Shown one piece after another: positions 732 through 10,921 of a stretch of 20,202 bases of DNA. Below the pieces are notes generated by a model. It was not told the DNA's origin. It saw nothing but the letters and a program-made list of their open reading frames with translations, and searched no databases. Source of the DNA: a virus; IMG/VR virus record IMGVR_UViG_3300027580_000034, positions 1-20,202 of that record. One strand, 5' to 3'. How positions within the stretch are numbered: position 1 is the first letter of the stretch; each line of letters starts with the position of its first letter. A program made the position numbers and the translations under genes.

Positions 732-2061
732 CCAGATTGAGTTCCAGTACGCCGGCTATCAGGAGGCGTGCATTGACGAGCTTGAGGCGGGCGACTCCGA
801 CCTGGTCGTCCTCCGAACTGGGTATGGCGGCGGCAAGTCGTACACGGGCGGGCAGTGGATCCACGAGGGCAGCATGGGCTGGCTGCCGGGGTCGCCGGCG
901 CTCGATCACGGCGAAAGTCTCGTGCTTGCGCCCGACTTCCAGAAAGGCGGCCCCGCAACGTACCGTGTCTTTTTCGAGACGCTGCCCGGTGAGAATACGG
1001 TCCCCGACGACGCCGGCGGGGATCCCGAGAACAGCTCAATCGTTGCCGGCTACAATCGCAATAAGCGCCGAATCACGTACGTCTCGGGCCACGTCGTCCG
1101 ACTCGGCAGTGCCGACAAGTGGAACCGCTACGCCGGCTCTGAGTTCCACCGAATCTGGATGGATGAACCGGGTCACTACGACACTACCAACCTTTACGAC
1201 CTACACGAGATGCTCATCTCACGCCAGCGCACCCAAGCGGGGCCGAACACATCGTTCTGGACCTCAACTGGCAATGGATTCAACCAGTTTTACGACATCA
1301 CAGAGCGGCGCGTTGACTCGGACGACGGTCAGCTTCCGTGGGGCGACTCGATGTCGGTCTTCGTCAAGTCGAGCCTGCAGAATCCATTCCTCCCGGAGGA
1401 CGCCAAGGCGAAGCTTCGCCGACAGTTTGAGGGGACCGGCCGGGAGGAGCAGGCACTCCATGGCGGGTTCGCGGCGGCCGAGGGCTTGGTATACGACCAG
1501 TTCACGCGACAGCGCCACGTCCGACCGCGCGACGAGATTGAGCTGCGTGACGACTGGCGGATGTACGGCTACGACTACGGCTGGCAGGATCCGCGGGTCA
1601 TCATCGAGTACGGTAAAACTCACGCAGACCAGTACGTCGCCTGGGATTGCTACTACGAGCATGGCCGGCCTGTCGAAGATGCGATTCGATGGCTTCAGAG
1701 TAACGACAAGCCTCTCGGGCCGATTTACTGCGACCACGACCCCGAACACATCGACAAGTTCCGGCAGGCCGGGTACGGTGCTCGCGCGGCAACCAAAGAC
1801 CTCGACGAGGGCATCAGCGAGGTTCAGGCCGTCCTCGAAGTCGACGCGGAGGTCGGGCCGGGACTGCTGGTCGTCAAGGACCTGGTCGAGTTGATTCAGG
1901 AGTTTCAGAGCTACAAGGAGGACGACGTCGGGACGAGTCGCGCCGAAGACCACTGTCTCGACGTGACTCGGTACGCCGTGATGGGCGACCGATACGGCGA
2001 TAGCGATAAATCTATTCGCCGCCGGTCGGGCGGCTCGCCATCCCGAGGGAGTTTCCAATGA
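718..2061 (+). CDS. terL: Terminase large subunit (DNA packaging ATPase and nuclease)
   Basis: This is the motor that translocates viral DNA into the prohead and cuts it to length. The ATPase domain shows a Walker A motif TGYGGGKS (residues 34-41), a Walker B motif WMDE (147-150, with catalytic Glu150) and a coupling motif with sequence TSTGNG shortly after. The RNase H-like nuclease domain shows acidic residues in the expected order: Asp286 in GYDYGW, Asp339 and Asp341 in CDHDPEH, and Asp411/Asp415 in DHCLD. The length of 447 residues is normal for the family. It overlaps the preceding gene by 14 bp and the portal gene by ATGA at 2058-2061. All key residues are present, so it appears functional. 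Confidence 0.96.
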   Translation: MSTSNQIEFQYAGYQEACIDELEAGDSDLVVLRTGYGGGKSYTGGQWIHEGSMGWLPGSPALDHGESLVLAPDFQKGGPATYRVFFETLPGENTVPDDAGGDPENSSIVAGYNRNKRRITYVSGHVVRLGSADKWNRYAGSEFHRIWMDEPGHYDTTNLYDLHEMLISRQRTQAGPNTSFWTSTGNGFNQFYDITERRVDSDDGQLPWGDSMSVFVKSSLQNPFLPEDAKAKLRRQFEGTGREEQALHGGFAAAEGLVYDQFTRQRHVRPRDEIELRDDWRMYGYDYGWQDPRVIIEYGKTHADQYVAWDCYYEHGRPVEDAIRWLQSNDKPLGPIYCDHDPEHIDKFRQAGYGARAATKDLDEGISEVQAVLEVDAEVGPGLLVVKDLVELIQEFQSYKEDDVGTSRAEDHCLDVTRYAVMGDRYGDSDKSIRRRSGGSPSRGSFQ

Positions 2062-3593
2062 GTACGAACACAGGCATCATCCGCGGTCGCATCGAGGCGC
2101 TCCAGCAGCGACTGTCGCAGTCCGTCGAGACGGTCAGTCGCAAGTCGCGCATCTTCATCGAGAGCAGCGATGTCGACGACCTGAACCCGCCCGAGGACAT
2201 CGACGAGTATCACAACCACTACCGCAAAGTGGGCATCGTTCGTGGGAACATCAACCAGTTCGTCCGTGACGTGGTCGGCCCGGGCGTCCGGGTTGAAGCA
2301 GACGATGAGACGACCGCGGCCTACTTTACCGGCGAGTGGGATGGCAGTACACCAGACTGGGCACCGGCGGGTGGCTTTCTCGACAACTGCGCAGTTATCG
2401 CTGGCGAGCGTCACCAGCCGTTCTATCCGTATCTCAAAACCTCGGTCGTCCAGAAGTACACTCGTGGGACTGTTCTCCACGAGTACCTCAAAAGCGACGA
2501 CCAGCAGGACGACGTCGAATTCCAAATTCAGGGGTTCAAGCACATCCGGCCAGAGACGGTATCGGCTCGGACGCACGCGAACACGAACATCCTCGTCGGA
2601 CCTGATGAAACTGACCTCGACCTCGATAGCGACGAAATCACGCCCCGACGCGAGGCGGCGGCCTATGTCCAGTTCGATGACAGCAGCATTGTCGGCACCC
2701 GGCGCGGCGGCCTCGACAAAGACGAAGTCCCGCTCTCGCAGAACGATGTGCTCAAGCAGGTCAACGACCCGGATGTCGGCGGGGACTCAGCCATCGAGGA
2801 CGGTGTGTTCGGCGACCCGCCACTGGCGGCAGTATCCGAGGACGTCGAAGAGTACCGTGAAATAAAGCGCGACCGAGCGCGGGCCATCAAGACGAAGGCA
2901 TACGGGGTGTGGTCGGCCCAGTTTAATACTGAGGTCACAGAGGCTGGCACCGAGATCATCCTCGAAGAGTGGGACGGCGAGGAGCAAAACGAATGGATCG
3001 ACGATGTCGGCAACCTGGGGCCAGGTGACATCATCGGCCACGACGGCAGCATCGAGCTTGACCAGTGGGAGCCGACAGTCCCCGACCTGAACGACGACCT
3101 GATGCATCTCGCCGACGACATCCTCGCAGCGCTGCCTGCTCCGAAGTTCCTTACGGCCCACGGCGAGCAGGTGACTCAGCACGTCACCAACGAGCAGAGT
3201 GAGGGCTATCACGACCTCGTCGAGGAGGAGCGCAAAGCACAGGAACGAGATTGGACGCAGGCGTTCCGCGAGGTCGCAAAGCGCCATCCGCGACTTGACG
3301 CCCAGGGCATCCAGGTTCGCATCCGTCCGCCGGAGTCAAGTAACCCCATCGCCGAACTGGATGATGAGCAAATCGAGAAGATGGAGCAGTTCATGTCGGC
3401 GCTGAACAACGGTCTCGGGGATGTGCCGATTGACTTGGTACTCGATGTTGAGGAGTTCCTGATGACGACAATGGACATCCCCGAAGAGGCGTTCGCGTCG
3501 GGTGGCGAGTCGGCCGTCGACGAGTCGAATCCGCAGGTGCAGGAGATGGCCGAAGAGTTGACGGGAGAACTCTCCGGGAGCGATGACGAATGA
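2058..3593 (+). CDS. Portal protein
   Basis: This 511-residue acidic protein directly follows the large terminase with a 4-bp ATGA overlap, and is followed by a Mu gpF-like minor head protein. That is the standard place of the portal, the dodecameric ring at the capsid vertex through which DNA enters. The sequence fits: an N-terminal helical segment, a mixed core that includes IQGFKHIRPETV and a long EEERKAQERDWTQAFREVAKRHP-type helical region (shown here split: EEERKAQERDW, about residues 392-402), then an acidic, disordered-looking C-terminus (ELTGELSGSDDE). There is no single diagnostic motif, so the call rests on length, composition and strict gene order. Confidence 0.85.
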   Translation: MSTNTGIIRGRIEALQQRLSQSVETVSRKSRIFIESSDVDDLNPPEDIDEYHNHYRKVGIVRGNINQFVRDVVGPGVRVEADDETTAAYFTGEWDGSTPDWAPAGGFLDNCAVIAGERHQPFYPYLKTSVVQKYTRGTVLHEYLKSDDQQDDVEFQIQGFKHIRPETVSARTHANTNILVGPDETDLDLDSDEITPRREAAAYVQFDDSSIVGTRRGGLDKDEVPLSQNDVLKQVNDPDVGGDSAIEDGVFGDPPLAAVSEDVEEYREIKRDRARAIKTKAYGVWSAQFNTEVTEAGTEIILEEWDGEEQNEWIDDVGNLGPGDIIGHDGSIELDQWEPTVPDLNDDLMHLADDILAALPAPKFLTAHGEQVTQHVTNEQSEGYHDLVEEERKAQERDWTQAFREVAKRHPRLDAQGIQVRIRPPESSNPIAELDDEQIEKMEQFMSALNNGLGDVPIDLVLDVEEFLMTTMDIPEEAFASGGESAVDESNPQVQEMAEELTGELSGSDDE

Positions 3594-4408
3594 GCGCAAC
3601 CGCCACCACCCGCCACGACAACATCATCGAACGGGCCCGCGAGCGTGACGAACCGACGCGGACCCAGACACTTCGGACACGGTATCAGCAACGCCTTCGT
3701 GGGCGATGGGCAGATATCATGGCGGCGCTCCGGACAGCCATCGTCGAGAACGATGTGTTTGGTCTCCGGACCGAGGCGCTGGTCGACCCTCCACGCGGAT
3801 TCGACTTCGAGCGGGACGCCGACAAACAGCGCGCCTTTGCGCGGTGGCTGGACCGACAAACCGACCGGGAAATCCTCCAACAGTTCGGACAAGATAACCA
3901 GTTTATTACGCGAGCCTACGAGCGCGGACTCACGGACGCCGCCACGGAGCTGAATGCACTCGGCGGGCTTGGCGACATCAGCACGTCGACGATTCGTCTC
4001 CCCGTCCATCGCGACCAACTCGAGGCGTTGTTCACACGGAACCTCACCGCGCTCGAAGGGATGACCGATGCGACGGCAACGCAGATGCGCCGGGAACTCG
4101 CCGAGGGGCTTGCGGGTGGTGAGTCACCGACCGCTATCAAAGACCGCTTGGCCGACCGCATTGACAAGATCGGCAAAACTCGTGCCGAGACCATCGCCCG
4201 GACTGAAATCCAGCACAGCCACAACCGAGCGCGGGCCACAGAGTACGAGCGGGCGGGGGTTGACCAGGTCGACATCGTCATTGCCAACGATGCCTGTCCC
4301 GAGTGCCAGGCGCTCAAAGCCGGTGCACCGTATCCGATTGAGAAGGCGGGCGGGCTGCTGCCGCTGCACCCTTCGTGTAGGTGCGCGTTAGTGGTTCACA
4401 CGGACTAA
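3590..4408 (+). CDS. Minor head protein, Mu gpF / SPP1 gp7-like (head morphogenesis), with replaced 3' end
   Basis: The 272-residue protein carries the classic C-terminal signature of this family: KTRAETIARTEIQHSHNRAR, then C236-x2-C239 in NDACPECQ, and finally LHPSCRCALVV with H260, C263 and C265. Family members enter the prohead in few copies, bind the portal and help DNA exit or head assembly. The start overlaps the portal stop by ATGA at 3590-3593. The last codons from about 4370 use AGG and TTA, which are rare in the neighbouring genes, and a second copy of the same C-terminus survives downstream at 5211-5262. The present 3' end therefore seems to have been supplied by the inserted endonuclease element. 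The protein itself should still be complete. Confidence 0.92.
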   Translation: MSATATTRHDNIIERARERDEPTRTQTLRTRYQQRLRGRWADIMAALRTAIVENDVFGLRTEALVDPPRGFDFERDADKQRAFARWLDRQTDREILQQFGQDNQFITRAYERGLTDAATELNALGGLGDISTSTIRLPVHRDQLEALFTRNLTALEGMTDATATQMRRELAEGLAGGESPTAIKDRLADRIDKIGKTRAETIARTEIQHSHNRARATEYERAGVDQVDIVIANDACPECQALKAGAPYPIEKAGGLLPLHPSCRCALVVHTD

Positions 4409-4438
4409 TCGCAAGACTTAGACGGCTTTAGAATAAAT
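4409..4438 (+). promoter_or_regulatory. Possible promoter of the HNH gene
   Basis: The 30 bases between the minor head stop and the endonuclease ATG are clearly AT-rich compared with the flanks and contain GACTTAGA and CTTTAGAATAAAT immediately before the ATG. No ribosome binding site is seen, which would suit an independently transcribed, near-leaderless gene. The spacing of a TATA-like element to the ATG (about 20 bases) is slightly short for a standard archaeal promoter, so this remains tentative. Confidence 0.3.
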
Positions 4439-5209
4439 ATGTATTCAACTAAGCGTGGGATTCCGCCGGTACAGAAATCGGACGGTGCTGGAACACCGCC
4501 CGCGCCTGGTGCCTCACCAAGCATGATGCAATTACCGATTGGCGCTTATCAAACCTCCGTCAGTGTATGCCCAGTTTGTAAGAAAGAACTCGCCTCAGCA
4601 AAAGGACTCGGCCCACACGTCCGAGCGACCCATCCAGATATTCATACAACGACCGAACGAATACGCAACGACTTCAACGCCAACCCGGACGACGTACTCA
4701 ACGCGCTGCACAACGCCGCCGGGTTGACAGTGCAGGAAATCAGTGAGCGGTTCGGCTACCATCGTGAGCAAATCGCCGAGTCGTTTGAGTTGCTCGGCGT
4801 TGAACGCGACGACCGGCCAGGGCTACAACAGAATTGGGAGGATCGGCCGGAAGAGGCGCGTATGTGGAATAAGACGAACGCTTCGCTTGGTGCTGCGGGT
4901 CGTAAAAAAAACGGGATGAAAGGCGTCACCGGGCAGGACCACCCAAACTGGCGTGGTGGGAAATCACTGTATCACGCGATTGTGGCCCAACTGCCTGGAC
5001 CGTCGTGGCGGACGCTACGGAAACAGCACCGGGGCAACGACTGCGAGATGTGCGGGAGCAGCGACCGGGAACTGCACCTGCACCACATCGTCCCGGTGTT
5101 GTCTGGGGGCACCAACGAGCCGTGGAACTTTCTGACGCTCTGCCAAGAATGCCACACAGCTGTGGAGTGGCGGACCCGCGAATTCGCCGACCCTGTTCTT
5201 GCCGAGTAA
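4439..5209 (+). CDS. HNH homing endonuclease with C2H2 zinc finger
   Basis: The 256-residue protein has three recognisable parts. Residues 44-65 form a C2H2 finger (C44, C47, H60, H65). Residues about 92-123 look like a helix-turn-helix (LTVQEISERFGYHREQIAES). The C-terminus has the HPNWRGG motif typical of phage HNH homing enzymes, followed by the nuclease with C202-x2-C205, catalytic HH at 215-216 in LHLHHIVPV, Asn in NEPWNF, and C235-x2-C238-H239. The metal and catalytic residues all look intact. Such enzymes cut a target allele lacking the element so that repair copies the element in. The likely target is the uninterrupted 3' end of the minor head gene, since this gene lies inside that site. 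Its GC content is somewhat lower than that of its neighbours. Confidence 0.93.
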   Translation: MYSTKRGIPPVQKSDGAGTPPAPGASPSMMQLPIGAYQTSVSVCPVCKKELASAKGLGPHVRATHPDIHTTTERIRNDFNANPDDVLNALHNAAGLTVQEISERFGYHREQIAESFELLGVERDDRPGLQQNWEDRPEEARMWNKTNASLGAAGRKKNGMKGVTGQDHPNWRGGKSLYHAIVAQLPGPSWRTLRKQHRGNDCEMCGSSDRELHLHHIVPVLSGGTNEPWNFLTLCQECHTAVEWRTREFADPVLAE

Positions 5210-5210
5210 C

Positions 5211-5262
5211 GCTGCCGCCGAACTGCCGCTGTGCTCTCGTCGTCTATACAACGAACACATGA
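5211..5262 (+). pseudogene. Orphaned original 3' end of the minor head gene
   Basis: In the frame that starts codons at 5200 + 3n, the DNA just after the endonuclease stop reads L-P-P-NCRCALVVYTTNT and ends in TGA at 5260-5262. This duplicates the C-terminus of the intact minor head protein (HPSCRCALVVHTD at 4367-4408). The two copies share CRCALVV but differ in many synonymous positions (for example CGC TGT GCT CTC here versus AGG TGC GCG TTA upstream). Its stop overlaps the protease ATG by ATGA at 5259-5262, the junction style used throughout the operon. It is the leftover of the gene as it was before insertion and is not expected to be translated alone. Confidence 0.85.
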
Positions 5263-7082
5263 CTCTCGAAACACTCCAGACTGGGACGGCCACCGTCTCC
5301 GGTGATGCGACCTTCGACGACGGCCCGTGGACAGTGCACGGTGTCGCACAGGCAAGTGAGGTCACGCAGGGTGTCAGCGGCAAGCGGCGGTTCTGGCCGT
5401 CTGAGGTCTTACGGGACGCCGTCGAGAAACTCGAGTCGACGCCGCTGGTGTCCCCAGACGACCACGAGGACCTGACACAGGGTCAGCCGGACCCGACGAC
5501 GATTATCGGTGAGGTGACCGACGCGGCGTTCGACGAGACACGCGCAGCACTGGTCTATCAGGCGGAGATTGACGACCCCGAGTTCGCAAAACTCGCGGCT
5601 CGCGGTCGTATCGATGTGTCTCCGTCGGTCGCACTCCGTGCCGGCGACCGCGACGAGGAGCGCGACGCCCAGCGCGTCGCCGAAGTCCTCGAGTACCGTG
5701 ACCTCGCTGCCGTGACCGAGGGCGCACACCCGAGCGCGTCGATTAATCTCGGCACTGCCGAGGCACTCTCTCGGCAGTTCGGGGTCTCGGTTGACGCTCT
5801 GCAACGTCAGCAGGCCCGGACGCCCGCATACCGCGGCACCGAGGACAGCGAGTGGTCAACACCGACGCTGGTCGACTATCTCCGCAACTACGACACGCTC
5901 CCCGCACCAGACGAGGTGAACAGCGTCGGCGACCTCACGCAAGACCAGCGCTCGCTCATCGCCAGCAAGTCGCTGCTGGGCACACCATCGGGAGAGACAC
6001 TCCGCGAGGTTCGGTTTTTCCCGGTCGTTGAACCGAGCACCGACGCATTGAATCGCCGCGCTCTGGGGGCCGTGCGGTCAGGGCGCGGAGAACAAGCTGA
6101 GATTCCCGACGACGCGCTCGCCAATGCCCAACAGCGCGCGGGCGAGTTGCTCGTCGAAGAGTTCGACAGCGATATCGATATTGAAACTATGGCAGACGTT
6201 AGCGAACTCGCTGAAGGACGACTGGTTCGGTGGCCGTCGACAGGTGACCGACCAGCCTACGGGATGATTGACGAAGTCCGGACAGACGGCGAACCTGCCC
6301 TCGACGAGGCGATTAACGGGGAGCAGCGCGTTACCAGTCCTGCCGCACTCATCGAAGTACACCGCCCTGATGGTGACGGTGGCTGGCAGCCGAGCGGGAC
6401 GATGGTCGGGCACAAGCCCGATACGCTGACTATCATCGACGACCTGCCGGACCCAGAATCGCTTGCTAACTCCTGGGGTGGCGATGACGGCCCAGACGGC
6501 GGTATGGGCCAGAGCACCCCGGCCACTGATTGGAGGACAATCATGTCTGACAACCTAACTGACAAGGAACGCGAGCTCCTCGCGGCCGCTGGCCAGAAGG
6601 ACGACCCTGTGGTCGTCGAGGCCGGGGTGCGCGAGCGGCTCTCCGAACACGACGAACTGCTCGACGACGCCGAGTCTACCGAGGACCCGGTCGTCGTTGA
6701 ATCAACCAACTACGACGCGCTGCAGGAGCGCGTCAGCGAAGTGCGAGACGTACTCTCCGAAGCCCTCCAGGAGCGGACTGGTCTGTCGGACGCTGCCATC
6801 AAGGCGATGCCGTTTGAGGCGCTTGCGGCAGAGTTCGAGACCGACGACGGCGACCTCGATGTCGAGGCACTGACGCAGTCGCCGGAAACAGGGAGCGGTC
6901 CGTCGGGGGACGGCGGCACTGACGGGCCGACTGACGAGGACCTGGAGCGACTCGGCGAAATCAAGACCAAACTCGACACAGTGGGAGACGCACTCCCCGA
7001 CTCGCGTGTCGAGGCACTCCGTGAGGAGGCGACTTCTCTCGCGGAGACGGACGACTACGCGGCCGCTATGGAGGTGCTCTGA
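5259..7082 (+). CDS. Prohead protease with C-terminal scaffold-like region
   Basis: The protein has 607 residues from ATG 5259. I chose this start because it overlaps the old minor head stop by ATGA; an upstream in-frame start at 5199 would lie inside the endonuclease insertion. Residues 1-160 look like a phage prohead serine protease: ESTPLVSPDDHED with His69, then IIGEVTDAAFDE, then DVSPSVALRA with Ser121 or Ser123 as nucleophile candidate. The middle contains SEWSTPTLVDYL ... LLVEEF, and a short beta-rich piece RLVRWPSTGDRPAYGMIDEV that resembles Tudor-like modules found in other phage proteases. The C-terminal part (from 429) is acidic and helical like a scaffold. The protease should process scaffold and capsid proteins in the prohead. 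Confidence 0.8.
   Translation: MTLETLQTGTATVSGDATFDDGPWTVHGVAQASEVTQGVSGKRRFWPSEVLRDAVEKLESTPLVSPDDHEDLTQGQPDPTTIIGEVTDAAFDETRAALVYQAEIDDPEFAKLAARGRIDVSPSVALRAGDRDEERDAQRVAEVLEYRDLAAVTEGAHPSASINLGTAEALSRQFGVSVDALQRQQARTPAYRGTEDSEWSTPTLVDYLRNYDTLPAPDEVNSVGDLTQDQRSLIASKSLLGTPSGETLREVRFFPVVEPSTDALNRRALGAVRSGRGEQAEIPDDALANAQQRAGELLVEEFDSDIDIETMADVSELAEGRLVRWPSTGDRPAYGMIDEVRTDGEPALDEAINGEQRVTSPAALIEVHRPDGDGGWQPSGTMVGHKPDTLTIIDDLPDPESLANSWGGDDGPDGGMGQSTPATDWRTIMSDNLTDKERELLAAAGQKDDPVVVEAGVRERLSEHDELLDDAESTEDPVVVESTNYDALQERVSEVRDVLSEALQERTGLSDAAIKAMPFEALAAEFETDDGDLDVEALTQSPETGSGPSGDGGTDGPTDEDLERLGEIKTKLDTVGDALPDSRVEALREEATSLAETDDYAAAMEVL
6532..6536 (+). promoter_or_regulatory. Internal ribosome binding site inside the protease gene
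   Basis: GGAGG at 6532-6536 lies six bases before an in-frame ATG at 6543. This is one of the few canonical Shine-Dalgarno sequences at a start in this window and it sits inside a coding region, exactly where the protease-like part gives way to the scaffold-like part. It supports separate translation of the C-terminal region. Confidence 0.6.
6543..7082 (+). CDS. Nested, in-frame scaffold protein (179 residues)
   Basis: Starting at ATG 6543 (residue 429 of the protease gene) and sharing its stop, this reading frame gives an acidic, helix-rich 179-residue protein, MSDNLTDKERELL and onward. It contains two DPVVVE motifs near its start, a coiled-coil-like stretch (ALQERVSEVRDVLSEALQER), a Gly/Asp-rich linker and a final helix. 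These are features of capsid scaffolds. The strong ribosome binding site upstream supports translation on its own, as for the lambda C/Nu3 pair, in which scaffold is made from inside the protease gene. The short capsid protein (283 residues, no obvious N-terminal scaffold domain) also argues for a separate scaffold. Independent production is an inference. Confidence 0.6.
   Translation: MSDNLTDKERELLAAAGQKDDPVVVEAGVRERLSEHDELLDDAESTEDPVVVESTNYDALQERVSEVRDVLSEALQERTGLSDAAIKAMPFEALAAEFETDDGDLDVEALTQSPETGSGPSGDGGTDGPTDEDLERLGEIKTKLDTVGDALPDSRVEALREEATSLAETDDYAAAMEVL
7070..7076 (+). promoter_or_regulatory. Ribosome binding site of the decoration protein gene
   Basis: GGAGGTG, complementary to the haloarchaeal 16S rRNA end, lies eight bases before ATG 7085 and within the last codons of the protease gene. 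It fixes the start and suggests high translation of the capsid cement gene. Confidence 0.65.
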
Positions 7083-10000: not shown

Positions 10001-10459
10001 ATGAGCGCATCAGACGTGGTCCAGGGGCGTGTCTACAACGTCAGCATCAACAGCACGCAACTGGACCTGATAGCGGACGAGTCGTTCAGTTTCGACGCCG
10101 GAGAGGACGTATCGTCGTTCGACCTGGCGACCGCAACAACCACACAGTCCATCCCCGGCAATTCCGACCCACAACTCTCGTTCGACCTTCATATGGAGAC
10201 AGCGAGCAAAACGGGCCTGGAGGAACTCGGCGTCATCGATGCCAGCGGCAATTACCAGTTCGACAAATCCAGTCGTGAACAGTCAACTGTGACTGTCGAA
10301 GTACTTGATGCCGAGTCGGGCAACGTCGAGGTCACACACGAGTTCACTGATGTCCTGTTCGAATTCAGCGGAATAGACGACGGCACGCCGGTTGAAATGT
10401 CTGCGACCGGGCACGTCAACGGTGACGCAACCATCGCTGTCAACAAAGGGGGTGCGTAA
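10001..10459 (+). CDS. Major tail tube protein, copy 1
   Basis: The 152-residue protein is predicted all-beta and directly precedes a close paralogue of identical length, then the tail assembly chaperones and tape measure gene. This is the place of the major tail tube protein. Visible parts are an N-terminal strand (MSASDVVQGRVYNVSINST), DLIADESFSFDAGEDVSSFD, SFDLHMETASKTGLEELGV, and a C-terminal FEFSGIDDGTPVEMSATGHV. Tube proteins stack as hexameric rings around the tape measure. Relative to copy 2, the middle region (about residues 65-120) differs most. It starts nine bases after the terminator gene and has no clear ribosome binding site. Confidence 0.8.
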   Translation: MSASDVVQGRVYNVSINSTQLDLIADESFSFDAGEDVSSFDLATATTTQSIPGNSDPQLSFDLHMETASKTGLEELGVIDASGNYQFDKSSREQSTVTVEVLDAESGNVEVTHEFTDVLFEFSGIDDGTPVEMSATGHVNGDATIAVNKGGA

Positions 10460-10462
10460 TCA

Positions 10463-10921
10463 ATGAGTGCATCCGATGTGGTTCAGGGCCGTGTGTACAG
10501 CGTTTCTGTGGGCGGCACGGCACTGGACCTAATAGCGGACGAGTCGTTCAGTTTCGACGCCGGGGAGGACGTATCGTCGTTCGACCTGGCGGCCGCAACA
10601 ACCACGCAAAGCATCCCGGCGAACGCCGACCCGCAAATCTCGTTTGACCTCCACATGGAATCAGCGAATCAGGCGGGGTTAGAGGCACTGGGTGTTGTCG
10701 ATGCGAACGGGGAGTACCAGTTCGACTCCGGGACTCGGCAAATCGACCCCGTCACGGTTGAGGTGCTCGATGCCGAGTCAGGGACCGTTGAAGTGAAACA
10801 CATCTTCAATAACGTACTCTTCGAATTCAGCGGAATAGACGACGGCACGCCAGTCGAGATGTCCGTCACCGGGTACATCAACGGCGACGTAACGATTGCG
10901 GATAACAAGACAGCCGCCTAA
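10463..10921 (+). CDS. Major tail tube protein, copy 2
   Basis: This 152-residue protein aligns with copy 1 without a gap. It shares MSASDVVQGRVY, the DLIADESFSFDAGEDVSSFD segment and FEFSGIDDGTPVEMS, but differs elsewhere (for example ANQAGLEALGVVDANGEYQF and VKHIFNNVLFEF). It starts three bases after the stop of copy 1 and is followed by the chaperone gene at 10924. Divergence with retained length and frame shows that both copies are probably functional. One may form the tube while the other forms a special ring, for instance at the tail end, or both may mix; the sequence does not decide this. Confidence 0.8.
   Translation: MSASDVVQGRVYSVSVGGTALDLIADESFSFDAGEDVSSFDLAAATTTQSIPANADPQISFDLHMESANQAGLEALGVVDANGEYQFDSGTRQIDPVTVEVLDAESGTVEVKHIFNNVLFEFSGIDDGTPVEMSVTGYINGDVTIADNKTAA

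What the first reader, a model, noticed from the sequence alone, without database searches (positions are those of the whole stretch)
4357..5262. HNH element interrupts the minor head gene and carries a recoded copy of the severed 3' end
Seen in the sequence: the minor head gene (3590-4408) ends with HPSCRCALVVHTD. After the HNH gene the same ending reappears out of frame with it, as P-P-NCRCALVVYTTNT-stop at 5211-5262, still overlapping the protease start by ATGA. The two copies are mostly synonymous but differently coded (AGG TGC GCG TTA GTG GTT versus CGC TGT GCT CTC GTC GTC). Known: homing endonucleases spread by cutting empty alleles at conserved sites. Inference: the element inserted at the most conserved motif of the family and supplies a replacement gene end that keeps the protein whole while removing the cleavage site. 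This would let a free-standing endonuclease live inside an essential gene without intron or intein splicing.
Basis: partly seen in the sequence, partly recalled or inferred. Interest (0 to 1): 0.85.

Follow-up and report, generated by a model that had tools for sequence, protein, structure and literature searches.

The report
Nuclease gene that replaces severed gene ends
In viruses of salt-loving archaea, a selfish DNA-cutting gene sits inside the end of an essential virus-head gene and supplies a rewritten copy of the cut-off end, so the host protein stays whole without any splicing; fungal mitochondria show the same trick, but I found no report of it in viruses or prokaryotes.

Summary
Confirmed and extended. 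The MuF-like minor head gene (3590-4408) ends HPSCRCALVVHTD*. An HNH gene follows, and 2 nt after its stop lies an orphan LPPNCRCALVVYTTNT* (5212-5262) that runs into the protease start. All eight shared degenerate codons differ between the two copies. Relatives without the HNH gene carry only one copy. The same architecture (host gene with replacement end, HNH, orphan native end abutting the HNH stop) occurs in five more viral contigs: L086, L119, L120 and L265 at the same MuF motif, and L124 at the end of the portal-like gene upstream of MuF. L120 and L265 share one site, so about five independent cases. HNH occupancy is patchy over the MuF tree (8-9 changes). Copies share fewer codons than independent synonymous draws predict (6 of 43 versus 15.8 expected, P about 6e-4). 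Best reading: free-standing HNH homing elements that persist inside essential head genes by supplying a recoded gene terminus. The arrangement works like the fungal mitochondrial mORF gene hybrids (atp6, cox2), here with HNH enzymes in archaeal viruses. Cleavage, homing and immunity of the recoded end are inferred, not shown. The HNH gene also carries a structured leader RNA with no Rfam match, shared by seven loci.

The parts
3590..4408 (+). MuF-like minor head (head morphogenesis) gene, with the replacement C-terminus
   Evidence: PF04233 2.7e-8; phrog_758 1.9e-30; 66% identical to L002
4367..4408 (+). Element-borne, recoded 3' end of the MuF gene: HPSCRCALVVHTD*
   Evidence: Read; compared with the remnant
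4412..4522 (+). Structured leader RNA of the HNH gene: P1, three-way P2/P3/P4, and a hairpin P5 just before ATG 4523 (in most relatives with a Shine-Dalgarno-like loop)
   Evidence: Same fold with many pair changes in L010, L120, L122, L123, L125, L265; no Rfam match
4439..5209 (+). HNH endonuclease ORF as listed; likely true start 4523 or 4526; C2H2-like zinc finger N-terminus, HNH C-terminus
   Evidence: PF01844 3.2e-10; HH, N and H residues invariant in 13 relatives
5212..5262 (+). Orphan native 3' end of the MuF gene, LPPNCRCALVVYTTNT*, out of frame with HNH, overlapping the protease start
   Evidence: same kind of remnant in L086, L119, L120, L265, L124
5259..7082 (+). Next head gene, prohead-protease-like (adjacent to MuF in relatives without the HNH gene)
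   Evidence: same position as the annotated putative prohead protease of ChaoS9; phrog_36109
2058..3593 (+). Portal gene (context); in L124 a portal-like gene carries the same kind of HNH element at its 3' end
   Evidence: phrog_9232 1.1e-38; L124

Best explanation
The segment from about 4373 to 5211 is a free-standing HNH homing element inserted inside the 3' end of the MuF head gene. It carries (i) a recoded copy of the gene's last about ten codons and stop, which is what the virus now translates, (ii) a structured leader RNA with a hairpin right before the HNH start, and (iii) the HNH gene, whose stop abuts the displaced native end. The native end (5212-5262) is an untranslated relic that keeps the overlap with the protease start and gives the right-hand homology arm for repair. 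Inferred cycle: the enzyme cuts an uninterrupted MuF gene at or near the HP|NCRC codons, and break repair from an occupied genome copies in the whole cassette. The recoded end keeps the product whole, is not a target, and is too diverged from the relic for the 40-50 bp direct repeat to recombine and delete the element. Shown: architecture, recurrence, empty sites, patchy distribution, excess codon difference. Inferred: cleavage, homing, immunity, non-translation of the relic.
For: Six loci with the complete architecture; the remnant starts 1-10 nt after the HNH stop and, in five of six, ends at a matching stop codon; scores 34-67 versus at most 26 in HNH-downstream controls. Empty sites: L002, L007, L009, L011, L012. 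L292 (74% aa to L086 MuF) and L293/L294/L296 are empty sites of the L086 lineage whose ends match the L086 remnant better (24-26 of 30 nt) than its element-borne end (21-22 of 30). L119's MuF end and its remnant both align to the same segment of the empty allele L212 (sequences). Codon identity at identical residues: 6 of 43 against 15.8 expected (P 6e-4; about 5e-3 without L120) and 48% between native ends. HNH occupancy needs 8-9 changes on the MuF tree, and the window's nearest row L007 is empty. L120 versus L265: MuF 62-75% identical, remnant and rightward 88-93%, a recombination boundary at the element. The same MuF motif hosts an intein in L040 (HPG|CRC).
Against: No cleavage or homing data. 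Individual repeats are short (7-13 codons). The element-borne end matches its own virus's C-terminus (ALVV in the window, AWLPV in L086), so it does not travel unchanged with the HNH gene over long distances. Several HNH-bearing MuF loci (L010, L122, L125) show no clear remnant, and L123 sits beyond an unaltered stop, so end replacement is not obligatory. For L119, the empty allele L212 matches both ends equally (22 of 30 nt).
Confidence: 0.83

Rival explanations
1. Same insertion, but recoding is passive: the new end came from a diverged relative or drifted to synonymous saturation, and gives no immunity.
For: GC3 of the recoded end equals that of the HNH gene in the window and L086; the fungal precedents are read as horizontal transfer (PMC3630166).
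Against: Shared codons (6 of 43) are below what even independent draws give (15.8), and native ends share 48%. In L120 and L265 the recoded end (GC3 0.14) is far more AT-rich than either host gene or HNH.
Confidence: 0.3
2. A self-splicing intron: removal of about 4373-5214 would join HP to NCRCALVVYTTNT.
For: Position and HNH cargo are typical of group I introns; the leader is structured RNA.
Against: No Rfam intron match in the window or 21 loci. The unspliced gene already encodes a full conserved C-terminus, which an intron would not need. Remnants abut the HNH stop with no room for a 3' splice structure.
Confidence: 0.03
3. The HNH gene moved in as an ordinary intergenic gene and the repeat is a local tandem duplication unrelated to mobility.
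For: L123 and probably HATV-3 have the HNH gene after an unaltered stop; HNH genes are common near phage head genes (PMC10448857).
Against: Six loci, two host genes and differing HNH proteins all place the remnant directly after the HNH stop; both copies align to one segment in the empty allele.
Confidence: 0.08
4. Assembly chimera or metagenomic artefact.
For: The window is an unnamed virus record from contig data.
Against: The same structure appears in several independent contigs from different metagenomes; reading frames are intact.
Confidence: 0.02

Closest known systems
Fungal mitochondrial mORF gene hybrids (Allomyces macrogynus atp6; Glomus atp6, atp9, cox2, nad3; Phlebia atp6/cox2; Ophiostoma rps3), PMC3630166 and PMC4019555
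   Same: Endonuclease ORF inside a gene; new C-terminus fused in frame upstream of it; native C-terminus displaced downstream; copies far more alike in protein than in DNA (Glomus atp6: 63.5% nt, 91% aa)
   Different: HNH enzymes, where the fungal case read here has a LAGLIDADG ORF; archaeal tailed viruses instead of mitochondria; very short ends (7-13 codons); structured RNA leader; several host families at one conserved motif
Free-standing homing endonucleases of T4-like phages (mob/seg), including the split nrdA of Aeh1 (PMC2988022)
   Same: Stand-alone HNH gene in or beside an essential gene; RNA hairpin near the ribosome-binding site; patchy distribution
   Different: There an interrupted gene becomes two polypeptides; here the severed end is replaced and one whole protein is kept
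ShiLan insertion with a hidden HNH in a mycobacteriophage methylase (PMC11855218)
   Same: HNH insertion in a phage gene with no intron or intein
   Different: ShiLan stays in frame and is thought to be kept in the protein; here the host gene is terminated with a recoded end
Fractured genes: split intein plus free-standing endonuclease (Dassa et al. 2009, from memory; paper not held)
   Same: Free-standing nuclease inside a gene; L128 looks like such a case in a MuF gene
   Different: Depends on protein trans-splicing; the window has no intein

Membership tests
HNH homing endonuclease (free-standing) | HNH nuclease motif with catalytic residues | tested here: met
   PF01844 3.2e-10; invariant C, HH, N and H residues in 13 members
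HNH homing endonuclease (free-standing) | Occupied and empty alleles of the same site, patchy distribution | tested here: met
   Empty L002, L007, L212, L292, L293; 8-9 changes on the tree
HNH homing endonuclease (free-standing) | Site-specific cleavage of the empty allele and super-Mendelian transfer | not testable with these tools
   Needs enzyme and mixed-infection assays
Terminus-replacing mobile ORF (fungal mORF gene hybrid) | Gene body fused to an inserted C-terminus, endonuclease ORF, displaced native C-terminus in that order | tested here: met
   Window plus five loci
Terminus-replacing mobile ORF (fungal mORF gene hybrid) | Displaced end resembles the empty relative more than the inserted end does | tested here: inconclusive
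   Met for L086 (24-26 versus 21-22 of 30 nt); window better for L007 and L011 but not L002; L119 equal
Terminus-replacing mobile ORF (fungal mORF gene hybrid) | Common descent with the fungal elements | not tested
   Analogy only
Group I or II intron | Conserved catalytic RNA | tested here: not met
   No Rfam hit at E up to 1 in 3590-5600 or at gathering score in L010 and others
Intein | In-frame splicing domain | tested here: not met
   HNH is a separate ORF after a stop; only HNH families hit by Pfam, in contrast to L040, which hits PF14890
IscB/HEARO (RNA-guided HNH) | RuvC and PLMP domains plus omega RNA | tested here: not met
   228 aa, only HNH by Pfam; HEARO not hit in Rfam; an IscB chain matches only through its HNH part

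The most novel reading that the evidence does not exclude
A general class of terminus-replacing HNH elements in archaeal tailed viruses. Each essential head gene they enter evolves a synonymously recoded end under selection both to escape self-cleavage and to stop deletion by repeat recombination, with expression gated by a switch-like leader RNA whose helices P2 and P5 compete for one strand. It is a fourth way, besides introns, inteins and intergenic placement, for a nuclease to live in essential viral genes.
Probability: 0.45. Interest if true: 0.82.

Novelty: new variant of a known kind. Interest (0 to 1): 0.7.

Why it matters
It shows how a selfish nuclease can occupy the inside of an essential virus gene without splicing, using a replacement gene end. 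The trick was known from fungal mitochondria; here it recurs several times in archaeal viruses, at one conserved motif and in two genes, with natural empty alleles and natural recoded alleles side by side. That makes the idea that synonymous recoding gives immunity to a homing enzyme directly testable. It also explains annotation oddities (duplicated gene ends, out-of-frame relics) and marks recombination boundaries in virus head modules.

Tried and rejected
Intron: Rfam searches negative. Intein in the window: none. Direct searches for close relatives of the window HNH in viral contigs and of MuF in genome contigs found nothing; alignment-based searches were needed. The AGA/AGG codon as a mark of occupied alleles: weak. 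A covariance model of the leader RNA was not built, because MAFFT misaligned the P2 strands; pairing was checked by hand-placed helices instead. Remnants in HATV-3 (FSGG) and L126 (VSGG) are suggestive but too short to count. The best HNH hits in haloarchaeal host genomes (L235-L238) show no end duplication by eye.

Full report
Observation. The window is a 20.2 kb virus record with a head module terminase, portal, MuF, HNH, protease-like gene, major capsid, close to haloarchaeal tailed viruses. The MuF gene ends at 4408 with HPSCRCALVVHTD*, the HNH ORF ends at 5209, and 5212-5262 reads LPPNCRCALVVYTTNT*, overlapping the protease ATG at 5259. The two ends share eight degenerate residues and not one codon. 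The match scores 56 against at most 21 in 31 regions downstream of unrelated HNH genes. In 20 relatives lacking the HNH gene, no second copy turns up downstream; the best chance score over 1.2 kb is 32.

Empty sites. L002 (66% identical MuF) ends LLPLHPNCRCALSIYTGAS* with the protease start 2 nt later. L007, L009, L011, L012, L013 and L014 are likewise uninterrupted. On a MuF tree of 64 rows the window's nearest row is the empty L007, and HNH occupancy needs 8-9 changes (few columns, so only starred forks are trusted).

Recurrence. L086 is a second complete case, in a distant virus on another branch of the MuF tree: element-borne end NCRCAWLPVI*, HNH, then NCRCAWLPVV* 2 nt after the HNH stop. 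Its nearest relatives L292 and L293/L294/L296 are empty, and their ends resemble the L086 remnant more than its new end. L119 has CVCAIAPVV* before and CVCALAPVV* after the HNH gene, and both align to the same short segment of the empty allele L212. L120 and L265 have VLLPVIS*/VLLPVIG* before and VLLPVIG* after. L124 has the element at the end of the portal-like gene upstream of MuF: EGWRQGG* before and after. In all six the remnant begins 1-10 nt after the HNH stop. L120 and L265 share one site and are not independent.

Codons. Over the six loci, identical residues use the same codon in 6 of 43 positions. Independent draws from HNH and host-gene usage would give 15.8 (P 6e-4; about 5e-3 without L120), and native ends of empty relatives share 48% (190 of 397). 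So the two ends are more different than saturation explains, which fits selection for difference. Arg as AGA/AGG at the CRC motif is commoner beside HNH genes (5 of 10) than without (5 of 43; Fisher p 0.014), but six tree-independent pairs cannot reach significance.

Mechanism. The nuclease is intact by motif. The inferred cycle is cleavage of an uninterrupted end near HP|NCRC, repair from an occupied genome with the MuF body as left arm and the relic plus protease gene as right arm, and acquisition of recoded end, leader and HNH together. L120 versus L265 fits such exchange: MuF 62-75% identical, then 88-93% from the HNH tail and relic rightward. The element-borne end always matches its own virus's C-terminus, so it is probably made or acquired within each lineage and not carried over long distances. 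Not every HNH gene here does this: L010, L122 and L125 lack a clear relic, and L123 follows an unaltered stop.

Leader RNA. The first 28 codons of the listed HNH ORF lie in a segment conserved in L010, whose HNH protein is otherwise different. The same fold, P2 enclosing P3 and P4, then a hairpin P5 directly before ATG (with a Shine-Dalgarno-like loop in most members), can be placed in the window, L010, L120, L122, L123, L125 and L265, with all placed pairs standard and many pair changes (helices placed by hand). P2 and P5 share the GCTT strand in most members, so they exclude each other. No Rfam family matches. T4 homing endonucleases are also translated under RNA hairpins (PMC2988022).

Same target, other solutions. 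L040 carries an intein at HPG|CRC of its MuF gene, and L128 a MuF gene broken by what looks like a split intein with a free-standing HNH between the halves. The MuF gene is thus a repeated target with at least three ways to keep the protein.

Known background. Fungal mitochondrial genes show the same arrangement: inserted C-terminus, endonuclease ORF, displaced native end, with copies alike in protein and not in DNA (PMC3630166; PMC4019555). In phages, interruptions leave split genes (PMC2988022) or in-frame inserts (PMC11855218). Text searches found no report of terminus replacement in a virus or prokaryote, within a library limited to open licences. I therefore class it as a new variant of a known kind.

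Noticed in passing
window 4412-4522; L010 4766-4876; upstream of HNH in L120, L122, L123, L125, L265: Structured leader RNA shared by different HNH genes, with mutually exclusive helices P2 and P5 and mostly a Shine-Dalgarno-like sequence in the P5 loop; unknown to Rfam.
   Followed up: partly
between MuF stop and protease start in L008, L010, L017, L025, L091, L093, L123, L125, L205, L206: A second conserved element, CCGATGAC...(hairpin with changing but paired stem, e.g. GCCGGG/CCCGGC, GCTGGG/CCCAGC, GCCAGG/CCTGGC), often followed by a T-run; possible terminator, leader peptide (MTPAGAE..) or k-turn. No Rfam match.
   Followed up: no
L040 290-2023: Intein inserted in a MuF gene at HPG|CRC, one codon from the HNH insertion point.
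   Followed up: partly
L128 2652-4838: MuF gene apparently broken by a split intein with a free-standing HNH gene between the halves.
   Followed up: partly
L120 and L265: Sharp recombination boundary at the HNH 3' part: 62-75% identity to the left in MuF, 88-93% to the right.
   Followed up: yes
L121 3809-5570; L123 3353-4930: Two HNH-type genes in tandem after MuF, i.e. nested or successive insertions at one site.
   Followed up: no
L016, L093/L094 MuF ends: Element-like recoded ends (TGTAGGTGC, TGCAGATGCGCGTGGTTGCCGG) without an HNH gene; possibly alleles that lost the element.
   Followed up: no
window 10001-10459 and 10463-10921: Tandem pair of 152-aa paralogues, 76% identical, in the tail gene region.
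   Followed up: no
L004 (ChaoS9) 3715-3786: tRNA-like sequence with an unusual anticodon loop between MuF and protease.
   Followed up: no
L189 about 3965-4000 and 4390-4440: In an AT-rich virus contig the short leader before an HNH start is repeated before the next gene's start (ATTAATAAACAAAACAAAAAATATG), another possible insertion footprint.
   Followed up: no
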